DNA of 53,406 bases. Source: Candidatus Methanoperedens nitratireducens. GTDB lineage: Archaea > Halobacteriota > Methanosarcinia > Methanosarcinales > Methanoperedenaceae. The stretch is from assembly GCF_000685155.1 (NCBI RefSeq), contig NZ_JMIY01000009.1:1-53406 (forward strand), written 5' to 3'. Under the pieces are notes generated by a model. That model ran no database searches and was not told the DNA's origin. It was given only the letters and a program-made list of their open reading frames with translations. Below, one piece after another: positions 1-53,406 of this stretch. Position 1 is the stretch's first letter, and every line of letters begins with the position of its first letter. The position numbers and the translations under genes are program-made.

Positions 1-80
1 GTTACACTATTCACTTTTCGCTATTAAAACTTAGTAATGAGGCAAAATATTAGGAGCTAAACGGATCTAAAAAAACCTGA

Positions 81-1994
81 GTAGATACAATAAATGTTAT
101 TACTGGTCAAAGCCAAACAGGAAAATCCGCTCTTATACCCATTATTGATTATTGTTTAGGCAGCGAAAAGTGTGCAATTCCTGTTGGTCCAATAAGAGAT
201 AAAACTGAGTGGTTCGGCTTACTGTTGCAATTAGAGAAAACCCAAATGCTTGTAGCTAGATCAGAGCCAGGGGATAAGTCTCAAACTACAGACATGTACA
301 TGAATGAAGCTGAGACAGTAGAGATTGTTAATCATCCATATAAGACCTGCAATACTGACGCGCTTAAAAACAGATTGAATCAATTAGCAGGCTTACCAAG
401 CTTGGATTTTGCAGGAGGGGAAGTAGAATCGTCATTTAAATATCGTCCTAGTATACGAGATATGGCTGCATTTGAATTCCAACCCCAGCACATTGTAGCT
501 AATCCATACACGCTCTTTTTCAAGGCAGATACCTTCGACCATAGAGAAAAACTAAAGACAATCTTTCCATTCGTATTAGGTGCAATTACTAATAAAATAC
601 TTGCTTTAAGACGAGAACTTAAGGAATTAGTAAAGGAATTTGAATTAAAAACAGAAGAGTTGAATAATAGAAAAGCAGCTGCGAATGCATGGATTATAGA
701 TATTAAGGCTTCATATTCCAAGGCACGAGAATTTGGTCTTTTGAGAGAAGCGCCGAATCCTCAGACTGATTGGGATATTAACAATTACATCCAAATCCTT
801 CAGAAGGTTCCTAAATCATCTGAATTGAACCTTCCAAAGATAGAAGAAGGCAGTACGGAGCGCGCTGTAAAGGAATTAAATGCGCTCAAGAACGAGGAAG
901 AAGGTATTTCTCATTCTATTGGAGTACTGCGTAATAAACTCTCCAAACTGGAGAGCCTATCTTATTCTGAGGAACAGTATGGGAAAGCACTAAATTTTCA
1001 AACAGAAAGATTAGATAGCGTCGGTTGGTTTGAGGATAAAATCAAGGATAAAACACTATGCCCGTTTTGCGGCTCAGAAAGCAGATCAGCATCAGATGAG
1101 ATTAGTAAGCTTCTTGAAGTAACAAAGAATGTACAGCGAACATCACAAGCTGTTACGAGTGCACGTGAAGTCTTGGATAAAGAAATTGCGGATATCAAAA
1201 AGCAATTACGTGACCTAGAGGGTAGGCTAAATGTTGTTCGTGATCATCGCCAATTACTGGAATCTAAATCTGAGGATTTAAGAGCAAGAAGACAGACATT
1301 AAATGAAATATATCGATTTGTCGGTAGGCTTGAGCAATCACTTGATAATTTAAATATAGTTCAAATCGATAGTCGTCTAGTTGAGGAGTTAAAACTACTT
1401 GAATCTCGCATTAAGGATATAAAGGTGAAACTTAATCCAGAAGAGGAGAAAAGAAGGCTAGGCAATGCTCTAAATTATATATCATCCTACATATCTCACT
1501 ATGTTAAGTTCATTGATGTTGAACGTCCAAATGATCCTATTCATCTTGATACTACTAACCTGACAGTTCAGGTACTATTGAAAAATAGATCCCGAAAAGA
1601 TTATTTGTGGGAAATTGGTAGCGGGGCAAATTGGATGGGATACCATATTTCTACTCTACTAGCTTTACATGAATATTTTTTATCCCTAAATATAAGCCCA
1701 GTTCCCAATTTTCTAGTTATCGACCAACCAAGCCAGGTATATTTTCCAGAACGCTGGCCTGGTGACCTAGATCCTAAGAACCCCAGTAAACTTCCTGAGG
1801 AGCCGAGCTCTGATGATATTGAACGAGTAAATAAGATATTCAGAACACTCTCAGAAGGGCTTTCTCGTACAAAAAATAAACTTCAACTGCTTGTGATAGA
1901 ACATGCTGATGAAATTACTTGGCAAGGAATTAAGGATATTAACCTTGTGGATAGGTGGCGTGATGGTAGAGCACTGATTCCGCAGGATTGGTAA
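81..1994 (+). CDS. DUF3732-type SMC/Rad50-like ABC ATPase with disrupted 5' end
   Basis: Large coiled-coil ATPase of the kind annotated as DUF3732. The frame is open from 81, after a TGA at 78-80. It encodes a Walker A motif (GQSQTGKS, about 105-128) upstream of the first usable start, the TTG at 225, and no ATG or GTG lies between 81 and 225. Downstream come a long coiled coil, a CPFCG zinc-hook-like motif near the middle, a signature-like segment (EIGSGANWMGYH), a Walker B-like LVIDQPSQVYFP and an H-loop-like VIEHAD. The family normally starts about 20 residues before Walker A; here that part is in another frame (ATG at 38) with a stop. The gene is therefore probably broken, or the start carries a sequence error. 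Such ATPases are often defence-linked, but no partner gene is recognised beside it. Confidence 0.65.
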   Translation, partial: VDTINVITGQSQTGKSALIPIIDYCLGSEKCAIPVGPIRDKTEWFGLLLQLEKTQMLVARSEPGDKSQTTDMYMNEAETVEIVNHPYKTCNTDALKNRLNQLAGLPSLDFAGGEVESSFKYRPSIRDMAAFEFQPQHIVANPYTLFFKADTFDHREKLKTIFPFVLGAITNKILALRRELKELVKEFELKTEELNNRKAAANAWIIDIKASYSKAREFGLLREAPNPQTDWDINNYIQILQKVPKSSELNLPKIEEGSTERAVKELNALKNEEEGISHSIGVLRNKLSKLESLSYSEEQYGKALNFQTERLDSVGWFEDKIKDKTLCPFCGSESRSASDEISKLLEVTKNVQRTSQAVTSAREVLDKEIADIKKQLRDLEGRLNVVRDHRQLLESKSEDLRARRQTLNEIYRFVGRLEQSLDNLNIVQIDSRLVEELKLLESRIKDIKVKLNPEEEKRRLGNALNYISSYISHYVKFIDVERPNDPIHLDTTNLTVQVLLKNRSRKDYLWEIGSGANWMGYHISTLLALHEYFLSLNISPVPNFLVIDQPSQVYFPERWPGDLDPKNPSKLPEEPSSDDIERVNKIFRTLSEGLSRTKNKLQLLVIEHADEITWQGIKDINLVDRWRDGRALIPQDW

Positions 1995-3595: not shown

Positions 3596-4187
3596 ATTTT
3601 AAATTTCCCTCCTCTCAGATAGTTGATATATTAATAGTAAACCTCCCTGGAATTAATAACTATAGCTTAAATCTGGTGGCAAGCAAGTCATCATTGGATT
3701 GGAGGCTTGCTGTAATTAGCAATCTATTAGCTGAAGGTTAAATATCACCATGTAATGAATCCTTCGCTGACCGTATTTTTACGGTTATGGCACCCTCACT
3801 TGTTCCCCACCTCATGCCAGTCTTTTAAAAATTTTCTGTTTGAGTTCATTAATCATATTAGGTTCAAAATTGCGAAATGATTTTTGATTTAAAGGATAGG
3901 TGGATTTCCCCCTTTTTGCCTGTGGGAACAGGAAAAATAGTTTTTGTGGTGGATGGCGGGGGAAATCCGTATGATTTTTTAGGATTTCATGTATTTAAAC
4001 AGAGGTGTGAGATAGGTGTGATCTATAATGCAATATGAAATAGGTTTAAACTTTCGCTATTGTCTGTTAACCCCTTTATTTCTTCTGGAAAAATTAAATT
4101 ATGTTGATGATGGTAATCATGAGAGACCAAATAAAAAAATCCAGTTATGTTATGGTCTTTTCTTGTAGTATGAATGTCTGCTATCGC
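3596..4187. other. Intergenic region holding repeat A copy 1
   Basis: No credible gene is seen here. The short open frames lack ribosome sites and recognisable content. The main content is the nested hairpin repeat at 3881-4022, described separately. The rest is AT-rich and lies between a gene start on the left and the 3' end of the HerA-like gene on the right. Confidence 0.6.
3881..4022 (+). repeat. Dispersed repeat A, copy 1 (nested hairpin plus TATA/GTGTGA)
   Basis: An 11-bp perfect inverted repeat, GGATTTCCCCC (3902-3912) and GGGGGAAATCC (3958-3968), encloses a smaller hairpin CCTGT-GGGA-ACAGG (3919-3932). The small hairpin can be extended by TTTTT (3913-3917) pairing with AAAAA (3933-3937). 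A T-run (3975-3980), a TATA-like TGTATTTAAACA (3990-4001) and two GTGTGA motifs (4005-4022) follow. The same order recurs at 18811-18945 (+) and 33861-33993 (-). In this copy no plus-strand gene ends just upstream. Confidence 0.8.
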
Positions 4188-7344: not shown

Positions 7345-8445
7345 CTATTTTTGTACTACCGTAATTTTATCCATAATAGTTGCGCTAGCAGGTAATGGTA
7401 TACCAGGATAATTCCCTGTTTTGTCTCCTGTTCTTCTATAATTCCAGAGATATTGATCATCCTTTTCGTTCACTAAAATGATAGCAATATCAACATTGGA
7501 TGTCGTGTTACCAATCCAAACTTGCATATTCCATTGTCCTTTTTTGGGCTCAACTCGCAACCCTTGTGGCCACCATAAACTAGGGGTTATTTGGGGATTT
7601 ACGAATACCCACATATATCGCTCTTCTGGCAATTTTCCAGAAAAGGTTCCGCTAACCATGGTAGAAACTGAGACTTTATCACCCTCTCTTGGAGCAATGA
7701 TTTTTATTTCAGGTAATTTAAATAAACTTTGGAAGCATTCTTCTGCTTTCTCTTTAGATCCTATTTTTCGATATGATACACATTTACCATACCATGCAGA
7801 ATATTTAATTTCTACTATCGGTGAATCTTGTCTATATGAAGAAGTATCATCTATAACAGTCACTACTTCTTCAAACTCTGAAATCGGATTATAACCGGAA
7901 GAATTAGAAAGATAAAGGCTAGCTATCCCTTTGTAAAGTAAAGCTTCAAAATCTTTTGGATTGCTTTTATATGTCTGATCAAAAGAATAGTATGCATTCT
8001 CAAAAGCATCTTGGTTTATAATAATGGAGTCATCAGATGAATTATAAAATTCTATTAGCGATCTTGCGTTGCTATATGCTCTGGTTAGATTAATTATTAA
8101 ACTTTCGTTGTTAATCCCTATATTAAGATAAGCAAAGCCCTTCTTTCTCCAAGCGTTTCCATTTTCCTTATCAATATCCAATGATCTACCATAATTTTTA
8201 ACGGCTTCTTGATAATCTCTCTTTTCATAAAAATTATTTCCTCTCTCTACTAGCTCATCACTTGAATATGGTAGAGGTGGATGAATGTAAGTAATTGCTC
8301 CTAAAAATAAAATAAGCGCTGTACAAATTGCTACTATTCTGTTGCTACTAACCCCACGACCAATTTGATTACAAACTTTGGTTATCTTATACGAAAAACT
8401 CCTCAAAAATCTCGACACTATACCAATTACTAGAGTAATTCCCAT
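7345..8445 (-). CDS. Membrane-anchored TPR protein
   Basis: 366-aa protein. A hydrophobic segment at about residues 35-54 is followed by a TPR unit (ELVERGNNFYEKRDYQEAV, then GNAWRKKGFAYLNIG) and further helical repeats to about 240. A beta-rich C-terminal domain (about 250-366) starts with IKIIAPREGDKVSVS. The topology suggests an external protein-binding domain tethered to the membrane. It lies 37 bp after the CBM-like surface protein on the same strand and may be co-transcribed with it. Function unknown. Confidence 0.7.
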   Translation of the reverse strand: MGITLVIGIVSRFLRSFSYKITKVCNQIGRGVSSNRIVAICTALILFLGAITYIHPPLPYSSDELVERGNNFYEKRDYQEAVKNYGRSLDIDKENGNAWRKKGFAYLNIGINNESLIINLTRAYSNARSLIEFYNSSDDSIIINQDAFENAYYSFDQTYKSNPKDFEALLYKGIASLYLSNSSGYNPISEFEEVVTVIDDTSSYRQDSPIVEIKYSAWYGKCVSYRKIGSKEKAEECFQSLFKLPEIKIIAPREGDKVSVSTMVSGTFSGKLPEERYMWVFVNPQITPSLWWPQGLRVEPKKGQWNMQVWIGNTTSNVDIAIILVNEKDDQYLWNYRRTGDKTGNYPGIPLPASATIMDKITVVQK

Positions 8446-12517: not shown

Positions 12518-12684
12518 TTTCCTTTTCCATCTCCTTATTTGAGATGATGCCCGCACAACATGAACTGCAGTACAACCATCTCATCTTATAATCATCATAT
12601 GATTATGATAATCAGTATTTAAAGGTTGCGGGTGCAAAAAGCCCATCCACTAATTCAACATACGATCTTCATTGAATAAATCAC

Positions 12685-12843
12685 CGCAAAGTCGGCTATG
12701 AACTGGTTCATAGATAACAATAAAAAGGACGATTAACAACGAACTCAAAACGAACTTAAACGAACTCCAGCCCGAGTTCGTATCGAGTTCGTACCAGTTC
12801 GTTGTTTATATTAGCTCAACCACATCCGAGTCTAAGATGCGAT
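12685..12843. repeat. Dispersed repeat B, copy 1
   Basis: A 159-bp unit starting CGCAAAGTCGGCTATGAACT and ending CTAAGATGCGAT. Its core has three CGAACT words at 12740, 12751 and 12761 and three reverse-orientation AGTTCG words at 12775, 12786 and 12796, all 10 or 11 bp apart, flanked by AACAA and TTGTT. It repeats 185 bp downstream and again at 53240-53345. Confidence 0.85.
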
Positions 12844-12869
12844 ATATATTGAACTTTTTCATACCAGGA

Positions 12870-13030
12870 CGCAAAGTCGGCTATGAACTGGTTTATAGAT
12901 GACAATGAAAAAGACGATTAACAACGAACTCAAAACGAACTTAAACGAACTCATAAGTCCGAGTTCGTATCGAGTTCGTACCAGTTAGTTGTTTATATTA
13001 GCTCAACCACATCTGAGTCTAAGATGCGAT
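12870..13030. repeat. Dispersed repeat B, copy 2
   Basis: Near-identical to copy 1 over about 160 bp, including the six half-sites. The last half-site has changed to AGTTAG, and the centre between the arms differs (ATAAGTC instead of CAGCC). It lies about 200 bp upstream of the secE start. Confidence 0.85.
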
Positions 13031-18810: not shown

Positions 18811-18945
18811 TTGATTTAATGAGTGGATTTTCCCCCCTTTTTGCCTGTGGGACAGGAAAAATAGTTTATATGGGTGGAGTGGGGAAAATCCAGGCATCTT
18901 TTTAAGGTTTTATGTATATAAACAATGGTGTGAAAAAAGTGTGAT
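18811..18945 (+). repeat. Dispersed repeat A, copy 2
   Basis: Outer arms are GGATTTTCCCC (18825-18835) and GGGGAAAATCC (18881-18891), and the inner hairpin is CCTGT-GGG-ACAGG (18844-18856). Compared with copy 1, one outer C-G pair has become T-A on both sides, so pairing is kept. A T-run (18899-18903), TGTATATAAACA (18913-18924) and two GTGTGA motifs follow. It sits between two convergent genes and could terminate the comDE transcript. Confidence 0.82.
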
Positions 18946-29426: not shown

Positions 29427-30695
29427 CTAATCTGCTACTTCCAGATCGCCTCCTTCCTCAGTTTGTGTGGGCGTTGGGGTTACAGTTGGTGTTGGAGACT
29501 CAGTTTGTGTGGGTGTTGGGGTCTCAGTTGGTATGGGCGTTGGAGTCTCAGTTGGTGTAGGTGTTGTAGTTACTGTTGGTATGGGTGTTGGAGTCTCAGT
29601 TGGTGTAGGTGTTGGGGTTACTACCGGGGTTGCTGTGGATTCTGGAGTAGTTGTGGGTGAGGGTGTTGCTGTTGCTGTAGGCGTGGGTGTTGGGATCTCA
29701 GTTGGTATGGGCGTTGGAGTCTCAGTTGGTATGGGCGTTGGAGTCTCAGTTGGTATGGGCGTTGGGGTTACTACCGGGGTTGCTGTGGGTTCTGAAGTTG
29801 TTGTGGGTGAAGGTGTTGCTGTTTGAGTTGATGTTGGTGTAGGTGTGGAAGTATTGGTCGGTGTAGGTGTTGGAGTTGCTGTTGGTATAGGCGTTGGAGC
29901 CATTGTTGCCGCAGGTGCAGGAGCAGGAGGTGCTGTAGGCCAAAAATACCAGGGAGGTATTGTTGGCCATGGATTTAATGCTGGTTCTGAGGATGGTGTT
30001 GATGCTGGTGCAGGGGCTGGCGTAGATGAAATTACTATCGGCGCAGATGAAGGTACAGCAGTTTCAATAATATTGATCTTCATGCTCTCGGATACAGGGT
30101 CTATATCACCTGATTGCAGCACCAGTGAGCTCTCAAGCATGGTAGGCTCTGATGGTGCTTTCAACTGAAGGTAGCCGCGTGTTTCACCAGGCGATATATT
30201 CCCTAATTTTAGGGTATCAGAGTCGATATTAAAGTTGGATTTTGCCTCAGAGAGGTTCAATCCCGCTAATTTAATTGTTGCATTATGTATTGTTCTTGAG
30301 GAGGGATTGTATATCCTGAAAGAGACCATGTAGCTATCATCGGTCTTGATATTATATGGATAGTACATATAAAGAAGTACGGAACTGTTTGTTTCTGGCA
30401 CCTCAGGTTCTATTGCTCCAAAGGCATTAGTGCTGCTCCCAATTCTCTCAGGCAGGTACATAGCCTGGGCAAAGAAGTAGAACATCCCGCCTGCTAAGAA
30501 CAGTATTCCGATCAGGAAACCTGTCTTTGCGATCTGGATTTTAAGACTCTTCTCTTCCCTGAAGGTCTCTTTTATTCTAAATGCAATGTATAGTGTTATA
30601 GCTGAAAGGGCTATTATTGTGAATGCAACCGCAATTCCAATCCCAATTATGCTAAAATTCATTATCCTAATTCCTCCCGTTTTGGTTTTTCCCAT
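29427..30695 (-). CDS. Membrane protein with long Thr/Pro stalk
   Basis: 422-aa protein with two hydrophobic segments (about 13-34 and 51-70), an external beta-type domain (about 95-215) and a C-terminal stalk of roughly 190 residues made of T/P/S/E repeats such as [12 protein letters not shown]. The stalk is probably O-glycosylated and extends from the cell. Its 5' end overlaps the glycosyltransferase gene by 34 bp, which suggests co-translation and perhaps glycosylation by that enzyme. Confidence 0.65.
29461..29900. repeat. Low-complexity tandem repeats coding the Thr/Pro stalk
   Basis: Related GGTGTTGG-AGTCTCAGTTGG-type units of 12-24 bp repeat throughout and differ by point changes. Long open frames of Gly/Val on the plus strand are a by-product of this composition, not genes. 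Confidence 0.8.
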
Positions 30696-33860: not shown

Positions 33861-33993
33861 TCACACAGATATCACACCCTTATTTATATATATGAAACCT
33901 TAAAAGCTGTCCGGATTTCCCCCCCACTTCCACAAAAACTATTTTTCCTGTCTTAGCAGGCAAAAAAAGGGGGAAATCCACCTATCAAATCAA
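33861..33993 (-). repeat. Dispersed repeat A, copy 3
   Basis: Minus-strand copy. The outer arms at 33913-33923 and 33969-33979 are GGATTTCCCCC/GGGGGAAATCC, and the inner CCTG/CAGG hairpin has a different loop (CTAAGA on the minus strand). A TTTTAAGG run, a CATATATATAAATA box and GTGTGATATCTGTGTGA follow. It lies just downstream of the thermosome gene in the same orientation, so a terminator or 3'-UTR role fits. Confidence 0.82.
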
Positions 33994-41672: not shown

Positions 41673-42800
41673 ATGGGGATGGATAACATGAAGAAGAAGA
41701 TATTAATAGGATTATTAATAGCAGTCGCACTTGTCAGTATTCCAGCAACTGCATCTAACGTGACCGGGGCGGATTCAACAACACCTAAACCAAGTGAAGG
41801 CTGGACGCTACATGTTGATGCCAAGGGGCATTTTCCAAGCGATCCAGATCTAACCGCGCACCATTACTGCAAGACCGGCGCTGGTGGCCTGGTGGCACAG
41901 TGCCAGCTATACGACAGTGATAGCCCGAATGCCAGTCTGGTAGGCGTAGAGGTGGTCGTGGATGCGGAAACCTATAACTCATTCAACGAGATTGAGAAAG
42001 CTCTGTGGCATTACCACAAGGATGAGCTTTCCAGGGTAGAAGTAACGTTTCCTGATCTCCCGCCAGAGGAGGCAGCTAGTGTTCTAAAGGACATAGAAGA
42101 TACCTACGGCAAGGTCTATACCCTGTGGGACCCGGGCATAAGCAACCTTCCGATAGGAAAACCAGAGATAACCCTCCACGATTCAACCCACGGCCAGGCG
42201 CAAAAACCGACTGTAACACCGAATATAACACCGGCTATAACGCCAACGATAACGCAAATATCTAAACCAAGTGAAGGCTGGACACTACATATTGATGCCA
42301 AGAGGCATTTCCCGAGCGATCCTGATCTAACCGCGCACCATAACTGTAAGACCGGTGCTGGTGGTCTGGTGGCACAGTGCCAGCTATACGACAGTGATAG
42401 CCCGAATGCAAGTTTAGTAGGCGTAGAGATGATTGTGGATGCGGAAACCTATAACTCATTCAATGAGACTGAGAAAGCTCTATGGCATTACCACAGGGAT
42501 GAGATTCTAAGGGATATAACGCTTCCTGACCTTTCTCCAGAAGAGGCAGCTAGTGTTCTAAAGAGCATAGAAGATACGTATGGCAAGATCTACATCCTGT
42601 GGGATCCGGGCATAAGCAACCTTCCAGTAGGAGAACCAGAGATAAGTATAGCCTATCCGGGCCCGGCACAGACACCAGCCGTAACACCGACCATAACACC
42701 AGTACCACCAACCATTATTCCAGAGTTCCCTACGCTCGCCTTTCCTATTGCAGCGGTAATGGTTCTAATATTGCTATTAGCCAGGAGAAAAAGGGATTAA
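41673..42800 (+). CDS. Secreted double-DUF1264 protein with PEF-CTERM tail
   Basis: 375-aa exported protein. A signal peptide lies at about 6-26. Two tandem copies of a DUF1264/OBAP-like domain follow (about 36-170 and 193-325). Each has SEGWTLH(V/I)DAK, DPDLTAHH, CKTGAGGLVAQCQLYDSD and ALWHYH. A Thr/Pro linker separates the copies. The C-terminus is a PEF-CTERM sorting signal: PEFPTLAFPIAAVMVLILLL then ARRKRD. The two halves are very similar in DNA, so the duplication is recent. Plant OBAPs coat oil bodies; the role in archaea is unknown. Confidence 0.85.
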   Translation: MGMDNMKKKILIGLLIAVALVSIPATASNVTGADSTTPKPSEGWTLHVDAKGHFPSDPDLTAHHYCKTGAGGLVAQCQLYDSDSPNASLVGVEVVVDAETYNSFNEIEKALWHYHKDELSRVEVTFPDLPPEEAASVLKDIEDTYGKVYTLWDPGISNLPIGKPEITLHDSTHGQAQKPTVTPNITPAITPTITQISKPSEGWTLHIDAKRHFPSDPDLTAHHNCKTGAGGLVAQCQLYDSDSPNASLVGVEMIVDAETYNSFNETEKALWHYHRDEILRDITLPDLSPEEAASVLKSIEDTYGKIYILWDPGISNLPVGEPEISIAYPGPAQTPAVTPTITPVPPTIIPEFPTLAFPIAAVMVLILLLARRKRD

Positions 42801-53206: not shown

Positions 53207-53239
53207 ATCAATCAAAATCAGCCACAGAGTCGACTATAA

Positions 53240-53345
53240 AAGACGATTAACAACGAACTCAAAACTAACTTAAACGAACTCATCAGCCCGAGTTCGTTTA
53301 AGCTCGTACCAGTTCGATGTTAATATTAGCTGAATTACATCGAGC
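53240..53345. repeat. Dispersed repeat B, copy 3
   Basis: Same core as at 12.7 kb: GACGATTAACAACGAACT, further CGAACT-like words (one is CTAACT), then GAGTTCG, AGCTCG and AGTTCG, and TTAATATTAGCT. It is more diverged than the other two copies and lacks the CGCAAAGTCGG prefix in full. It lies directly after the nar-like operon. Confidence 0.78.
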
Positions 53346-53406
53346 CCATTTTCCGCACATTTTAATACAACTCCCTCCCGAATCAGTATTTAGAAAATGG
53401 ACTACA

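What the first reader, a model, noticed from the sequence alone, without database searches (positions are those of the whole stretch)
3881..4022. Repeat A: nested hairpin with compensatory change in three dispersed copies
Copies at 3881-4022 (+), 18811-18945 (+) and 33861-33993 (-) share order: outer 11-bp stem, inner CCTG/CAGG hairpin, T-run, TATA-like box, two GTGTGA words. In copy 2 the outer stem changed a C-G pair to T-A on both arms, and inner loops vary while the stem stays. That is evidence for selection on folded structure. Candidates are a family of small RNAs, a 3'-UTR/terminator module (copies 2 and 3 follow comDE and the thermosome gene), or a MITE-like element.
Basis: partly seen in the sequence, partly recalled or inferred. 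Interest (0 to 1): 0.78.

Follow-up and report, generated by a model that had tools for sequence, protein, structure and literature searches.

The report
Small-RNA genes in an archaeal swimming regulon
The three look-alike hairpins are copies of a previously undescribed small-RNA gene of methane-eating archaea (Candidatus Methanoperedens), apparently switched on by the same DNA switch as the cell's swimming and chemotaxis genes, which suggests that an archaeal motility programme includes its own regulatory RNAs.

Summary
There, every copy runs TCACAC-N5-TCACAC-N5-TTTATATA, about 22 nt, then a roughly 70-nt RNA: an outer 8-12 bp helix, a nearly G-free pyrimidine-rich internal loop, and an inner hairpin. 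A covariance model finds 23 members in 8 of 31 Ca. Methanoperedens species and none in 141 other genomes of the class. The outer helix is 97.6% paired, and 9 of its 11 pairs have changes on both sides. In 19 of 23 members the operator, which was not part of the model, sits at exact spacing (chance about 0.0002 per site). The same promoter has only about 14 sites in this genome: seven at these RNA genes and five inside the 14-kb archaellum/chemotaxis cluster, including those of cheY and archaellin. An exact-pattern scan of 84,980 species genomes found it almost only in Methanoperedens. I conclude that this is a multicopy sRNA family in the motility regulon. Transcription itself, the targets and the regulator are not shown; computed pairing with translation starts was uninformative. 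No Rfam family matches.

The parts
3992..4021 (-). Copy 1 promoter: TCACAC-N5-TCACAC-N5-TTTAAATA (operator direct repeats plus TATA box)
3895..3970 (-). Copy 1 predicted small RNA; outer stem 3958-3968/3902-3912, inner CCTG/CAGG hairpin 3919-3932; ends are inferred
18915..18944 (-). Copy 2 promoter: TCACAC-N5-TCACAC-N5-TTTATATA
18817..18893 (-). Copy 2 predicted small RNA (outer stem 18881-18891/18825-18835, with the C-G to U-A double change); convergent with the comDE gene
33861..33890 (+). Copy 3 promoter: TCACAC-N5-TCACAC-N5-TTTATATA
33911..33987 (+). Copy 3 predicted small RNA (outer stem 33913-33923/33969-33979); convergent with the thermosome gene

Best explanation
Each copy is a free-standing small-RNA gene. 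A transcription factor, not yet identified, binds two TCACAC boxes 11 bp apart (one helical turn) just upstream of a TATA box; the same arrangement stands in front of archaellin, cheY, an MCP and other genes of the archaellum/chemotaxis cluster. The RNA therefore should be made together with the swimming apparatus. It starts at about the 5' foot of the outer helix and is about 70-85 nt long, with a closed 8-12 bp helix, an inner hairpin stacked on the 3' arm, and a long, nearly G-free, C/U-rich 5' internal loop held open. The most likely action is base-pairing in trans: the open loop (for example CUCCACC, CCCACUCC) pairs with G-rich ribosome-binding or start regions of mRNAs that should be turned down when the cell swims. 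Paralogues differ in loop sequence and so may divide the targets. Shown here by comparative sequence evidence: the family, its structure under selection, promoter sharing, strand and taxonomic range. Inferred: transcription, exact ends, trans-pairing, targets, and activation rather than repression by the factor. The confidence given is for the sRNA gene family in the motility regulon; for ribosome-binding-site masking alone I would give about 0.35.
For: Family and structure: 6 close copies in the genome; covariance-model hits at E down to 1e-15 to 1e-21 in 8 of 31 congeners and 0 of 141 other-genus class members (0 of 29). Across 20 members the outer helix is 97.6% paired, 9 of 11 pairs change on both sides, covariation 0.350 against 0.165 for shuffles (0/500) and at most 0.132 for slid partners. 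All 23 fold alone with the outer helix, mean z -5.6, against -4.5 on the other strand. Promoter and strand: operator at exact spacing in 18 of 23 by script, 19 with G009, which the script mislocated (seen); background 45/200,000. TATA lies about 30 nt before the stem. Regulon: 13 sites with up to 3 mismatches genome-wide, 0 reversed-control hits; 14 sites by PWM trained on other species, 0 controls: 7 at these RNAs, 5 in the arl/che cluster at C7:612-626 kb. 22 of 31 congeners carry the motif, 0 controls; 27 of 29 exact hits in genome contigs are Methanoperedens or its close MAGs.
Against: No RNA-seq was available, so transcription is not shown. Duplex energies between the loops and about 2,200 predicted gene starts were little better than shuffled controls, and motility genes did not rank high, so the Shine-Dalgarno-masking step is unsupported. 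No U-rich terminator follows the stem. The three G030 members stand behind a different upstream box (GATTATTAA-N-T-N-C-N-AAGA-TATA) found essentially only at those RNAs, so the motility link is not universal. 12 motif-bearing species with at least 4 sites have no detected member. Two copies in G024 are truncated relics (L020, L021), so individual copies are dispensable. The alignment used for covariation was fitted to the model; an unguided MAFFT alignment of diverged members misaligns the arms and supports only 8 pairs. Seven to eight of the 20 rows are paralogues from one genome. Wobble counts on the inner helix do not discriminate strand.
Confidence: 0.8

Rival explanations
1. The RNA is transcribed from this promoter but does not pair with mRNAs: it binds a protein (for example titrating an RNA-binding or ribosome-associated factor) as a sponge of the motility programme.
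For: Structure is kept while loop sequences drift, and no convincing targets came out; several near-identical copies raise dosage.
Against: The G-free, open, C/U-rich loop is a recurrent feature, as expected of an antisense region; no conserved protein-binding sequence common to all members was seen beyond the helix.
Confidence: 0.25
2. A 3'-UTR or transcription-terminator module of the upstream genes (comDE, thermosome), read on the reader's strand.
For: Copies 2 and 3 follow those genes on the same strand, and a stem followed by a T-run looks like a terminator.
Against: Copy 1, the C7 copy and the C2 array do not follow a gene on that strand. The T-run is not kept in diverged members whereas the operator on the other side is. 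A terminator does not explain sharing of an operator with cheY and archaellin.
Confidence: 0.05
3. A MITE-like mobile element that happens to carry a promoter and a hairpin.
For: Dispersed copies; homology begins exactly at the first operator base and stops about 10 nt after the stem; copies are gained and lost between species (L020, L021).
Against: The two ends are not inverted repeats of each other; diverged members in other species keep the fold through compensatory changes; the promoter is tied to a functional regulon; real MITE-like repeats in this genome have dozens of copies (window 12677-13030).
Confidence: 0.07
4. A regulatory leader (riboswitch-like) of a downstream protein gene.
For: The C2 array lies about 75 bp upstream of an adenylate kinase operon.
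Against: Copies 2 and 3 point at the 3' end of convergent genes, and copies 1 and C7 have gaps of more than 300 bp before the next start; no common downstream gene.
Confidence: 0.04

Closest known systems
sigma28-dependent flagellar sRNAs of E. coli (UhpU, MotR, FliX, FlgO; PMC10578931)
   Same: Small RNAs placed under the transcription control of the motility regulon.
   Different: The E. coli RNAs are UTR-derived and act with Hfq in a bacterium; these are free-standing genes in several copies with an archaeal TATA promoter; no sequence relation claimed.
hvo_1211s of Haloferax volcanii (PMC13286277)
   Same: A regulatory RNA in an archaeal archaellum network.
   Different: Overlaps cirA (a cis-type RNA) in a halophile with another regulator (CsmR, TATCA-N4-TGATA); not a dispersed family with its own motility-type promoters.
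EarA-type archaellum promoters (boxes TACATA; PMC10665913, PMC13286277)
   Same: Tandem 6-bp boxes just upstream of BRE/TATA of archaellum genes.
   Different: Box sequence is TCACAC rather than TACATA; exactly two boxes at 11-bp spacing; many sites per genome, not only the first archaellin gene; EarA itself was not searched for here.
Trans-acting sRNAs of Methanosarcina mazei (sRNA162, PMC3510493; sRNA154, PMC3177094)
   Same: Same order of archaea, intergenic regulatory RNAs.
   Different: Single genes tied to other physiology; the present family has no Rfam match, and the models found nothing in the other families of the order that were searched.

Membership tests
Motility-regulon small RNA (functional class) | Promoter shared with flagellum/archaellum or chemotaxis genes | tested here: met
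Motility-regulon small RNA (functional class) | Conserved non-coding RNA structure | tested here: met
Motility-regulon small RNA (functional class) | Transcript observed and co-expressed with motility genes | not testable with these tools
   no RNA-seq available
Motility-regulon small RNA (functional class) | Alters motility or target mRNA levels | not testable with these tools
   target energies uninformative
Any Rfam 15 family | Match at gathering score, or E<1 for copy 1 | tested here: not met
MITE | Terminal inverted repeats | tested here: not met
   ends read directly: TCACAC at one end, no GTGTGA at the other
MITE | Target-site duplication | not tested
   no clean empty site was compared
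Intrinsic terminator / 3'-UTR module | Lies downstream of a gene on the same strand in most copies, with a kept T-run | tested here: not met
   2 of 6 copies; T-run lost in diverged members
EarA-regulated promoter | TACATA-type boxes | tested here: not met
   boxes are TCACA(C/A)
EarA-regulated promoter | EarA homologue binds the boxes | not tested
   EarA was not searched for; binding needs experiment

The most novel reading that the evidence does not exclude
A multicopy family of trans-acting sRNAs built into the archaellum/chemotaxis regulon of Methanoperedens, with paralogues carrying different antisense loops under one operator, couples swimming to the repression of other mRNAs: an archaeal counterpart, evolved independently, of the flagellar-sigma sRNAs of bacteria. 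In one lineage (G030) the RNAs have been rewired to another promoter box.
Probability: 0.5. Interest if true: 0.8.

Novelty: new variant of a known kind. Interest (0 to 1): 0.7.

Why it matters
Post-transcriptional control of archaeal motility is almost unexplored, and the archaellum regulator of Methanosarcinales methanotrophs is, as far as I could find, undescribed. The finding supplies a sharply defined operator (about 14 sites per genome, essentially no background), a candidate regulon, and a new RNA family with a clear fold. Both can be tested on existing Methanoperedens metatranscriptomes.

Tried and rejected
Rfam at gathering score on the whole window and at E<1 on copy 1: nothing. A first promoter pattern with the wrong spacing found nothing. 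Terminator, MITE and leader readings were considered and rejected (see rivals). Target prediction by duplex energy against about 2,200 computed gene starts: no better than weak bias, no motility enrichment. Unguided MAFFT plus RNAalifold of diverged members misaligned the arms. Wobble counting as a strand test: 6 versus 2 in the outer helix, but 6 versus 7 in the inner one, so not used as proof. Test of whether the 348-aa cluster protein (L035:14219-15265, autoregulated by the motif) is the regulator: orthologues at 70% identity or more in 19 of the 20 genomes with at least 2 motif sites and in none of the other 11, but the whole cluster type co-varies. Its N-terminus resembles a ribbon-helix-helix only by eye; Pfam gives nothing, so it is only a candidate. 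Viral contigs: no exact promoter hits. Literature: no paper linking Methanoperedens with an archaellum sRNA in the library.

Full report
WHAT IS THERE. The three copies are real, at the stated coordinates, about 79% identical over about 135 nt. A whole-genome search gave three more close copies (C7:578019, C2:485704, C6:21536). Copy 1 and the C6 copy lie in a shared 432-bp duplicated segment (91% identity), so they are not independent. Among the other copies homology starts exactly at the first base of TCACAC and stops about 10 nt beyond the outer stem.

STRAND. Read on the opposite strand, every copy is TCACAC-N5-TCACAC-N5-TTTA(T/A)ATA, about 22 nt, then GGATTTCCCCC-[loop]-TTTTTCCTG..CAGGCAAAAA-GGGGGAAATCC. 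The TATA box lies about 30 nt before the stem, the usual distance from an archaeal TATA box to a start site (general knowledge), so transcription should begin at the stem's 5' foot. In two members single changes (C7 copy, C6 copy) give G-U pairs on this strand and mismatches on the other; over the family this asymmetry is 6 to 2 in the outer helix but absent in the inner one, so the main strand evidence is the promoter.

THE PROMOTER IS THE MOTILITY PROMOTER. With up to 3 mismatches the promoter pattern has 13 sites in the genome and no reversed-control hits. A weight matrix trained only on other species gives 14 sites at 29 bits or more in the 2.36 Mb read, none lower down to 9 bits (the scan pruned poor first boxes), and no control hits. 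Seven sites are at these RNAs (six close copies plus the diverged C2:485537). Five lie at C7:612-626 kb, in front of cheY (followed by cheB, A, R, C, D), an archaellin (followed by arlF, G, H, I, J-type genes), a 348-aa protein, an MCP and a KaiC-like ATPase. Two precede small membrane-type proteins (C6:19535, C7:479130). In the genus 22 of 31 genomes have sites with up to 2 mismatches, none in the control, with cheY orthologues visible right after the site in G002, G006, G008, G012, G018 and G024. Among 84,980 species genomes the exact pattern hits 29 stretches, 27 of them Methanoperedens or MAGs matching genomes of this genus set; this names the genus.

THE RNA FAMILY. Behind some sites stand hairpins with different stem sequences but the same architecture: GTGGACTCCC/GGGAGTCCAC at C2:485537, GGACTCCCT/AGGGAGTCC in G024, GGACTTCTCC/GGAGAAGTCC in G009. 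Model R1 (8 sequences, operator not included) and its successor R2 give 23 members in 8 genomes: G000 8, G005 4, G024 3, G030 3, G007 2, G009, G012 and G015 1 each. In 141 genomes of the class outside the genus R2 finds nothing at E<=0.001. On 20 members the outer helix is 97.6% paired, nine of eleven pairs have changes on both sides, and the covariation score is 0.350 against 0.165+-0.015 shuffled (0 of 500) and 0.08-0.13 for slid partners. The alignment was fitted to the model, which favours the structure, but each of 23 members folded alone forms the outer helix (mean z -5.6). The operator, outside the model, is at the exact spacing with up to 3 mismatches in 19 of 23 (18, plus G009, mislocated by the script because the locus is cut short, seen); the background rate is 45 in 200,000. 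The four exceptions are one degenerate member of the C2 array and the three of G030, which share another box, GATTATTAA.T.C.AAGA-TATA, that occurs with few mismatches only at these three RNAs.

HOW IT MAY WORK. The 5' side of the internal loop is long, open in the predictions, and almost free of G (for example CCCACUUCCACAAAAACUA, CUCUCCCAUCUAUAUAAAAACUA, ACUCCACCCAUAUAAACUA). This is what an antisense region against G-rich ribosome-binding sites looks like. Duplex energies with computed gene starts were however no convincing support, and archaellum/chemotaxis genes were not among the best partners. Trans-pairing is therefore the preferred but unproven step; a protein sponge is the main rival.

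CONTEXT AND TURNOVER. In G024 the comDE and thermosome sites carry only the 3' half of the RNA, without promoter (L020, L021): decayed orthologues, so single copies are dispensable. comDE is here one fused gene. Of the nine genomes without the motif, six (G001, G013, G016, G022, G026, G030) have two arlI matches back to back (two adjacent ORFs read in G030), so the promoter goes with one type of archaellum cluster.

KNOWN RELATIVES. No Rfam match. In function it resembles the sigma28-dependent sRNAs of E. coli (PMC10578931); a regulatory RNA, hvo_1211s, is reported in the archaellum network of Haloferax (PMC13286277). The two-box promoter recalls EarA boxes (TACATA; PMC10665913) but the sequence differs. 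I found no paper on this family.

VERDICT. A new, multicopy small-RNA family of the Methanoperedens motility regulon: family, fold and promoter sharing strongly supported by comparison; transcription, targets and regulator still to be shown.

Noticed in passing
window 12677-13030 and 53238-53341: A roughly 100-190-nt dispersed repeat (AACGAACTCAAAACGAACTTAAACGAACTC...) with some thirty further places across C1, C2, C4 and C7, mostly 85-97% identical (one piece 100%): a true MITE-like family of this genome.
   Followed up: partly
G000:C2:485419-485833 (L038 about 7419-7833): Three RNA genes in a row (two with operator, one degenerate) about 75 bp upstream of an adenylate kinase gene.
   Followed up: partly
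L077, L122, L123 (G030): Three members of the RNA family in a genome without the TCACAC motif share another upstream box, GATTATTAACTGCTAAGA-TATATA; one stands next to a pilin-like gene.
   Followed up: partly
L248:3156-6380 (G030:C73) and matches in G001, G013, G016, G022, G026, G011: Two complete archaellum motor ATPase (arlI) genes lie back to back in genomes with no (G011: one) TCACAC site; motif-bearing genomes have a single full-length one.
   Followed up: partly
L035:14219-15265 and L035:13338-14006: Two proteins of the archaellum cluster without Pfam match whose N-termini resemble ribbon-helix-helix by eye; the first has the motif directly upstream, and close orthologues occur only in motif-bearing genomes. 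Candidate regulators.
   Followed up: partly
L020:1501-1548 and L021:1501-1537 (G024): Truncated relics of the RNA gene at the thermosome and comDE sites; both lack promoter and 5' arm and end at nearly the same point, possibly by deletion between TCCTG repeats.
   Followed up: partly
window 29427-30695: Predicted protein with about 15 tandem 24-nt repeats at its C-terminal coding end.
   Followed up: no
window 41780-42700: Direct duplication of about 450 nt (84-90% identity) inside one predicted gene.
   Followed up: no
window 23-102 and 53345-53406: Both contig ends lie in short repeats found at several other places of the genome at 91-100% identity, so the contig ends are probably assembly breaks in repeats.
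   Followed up: no
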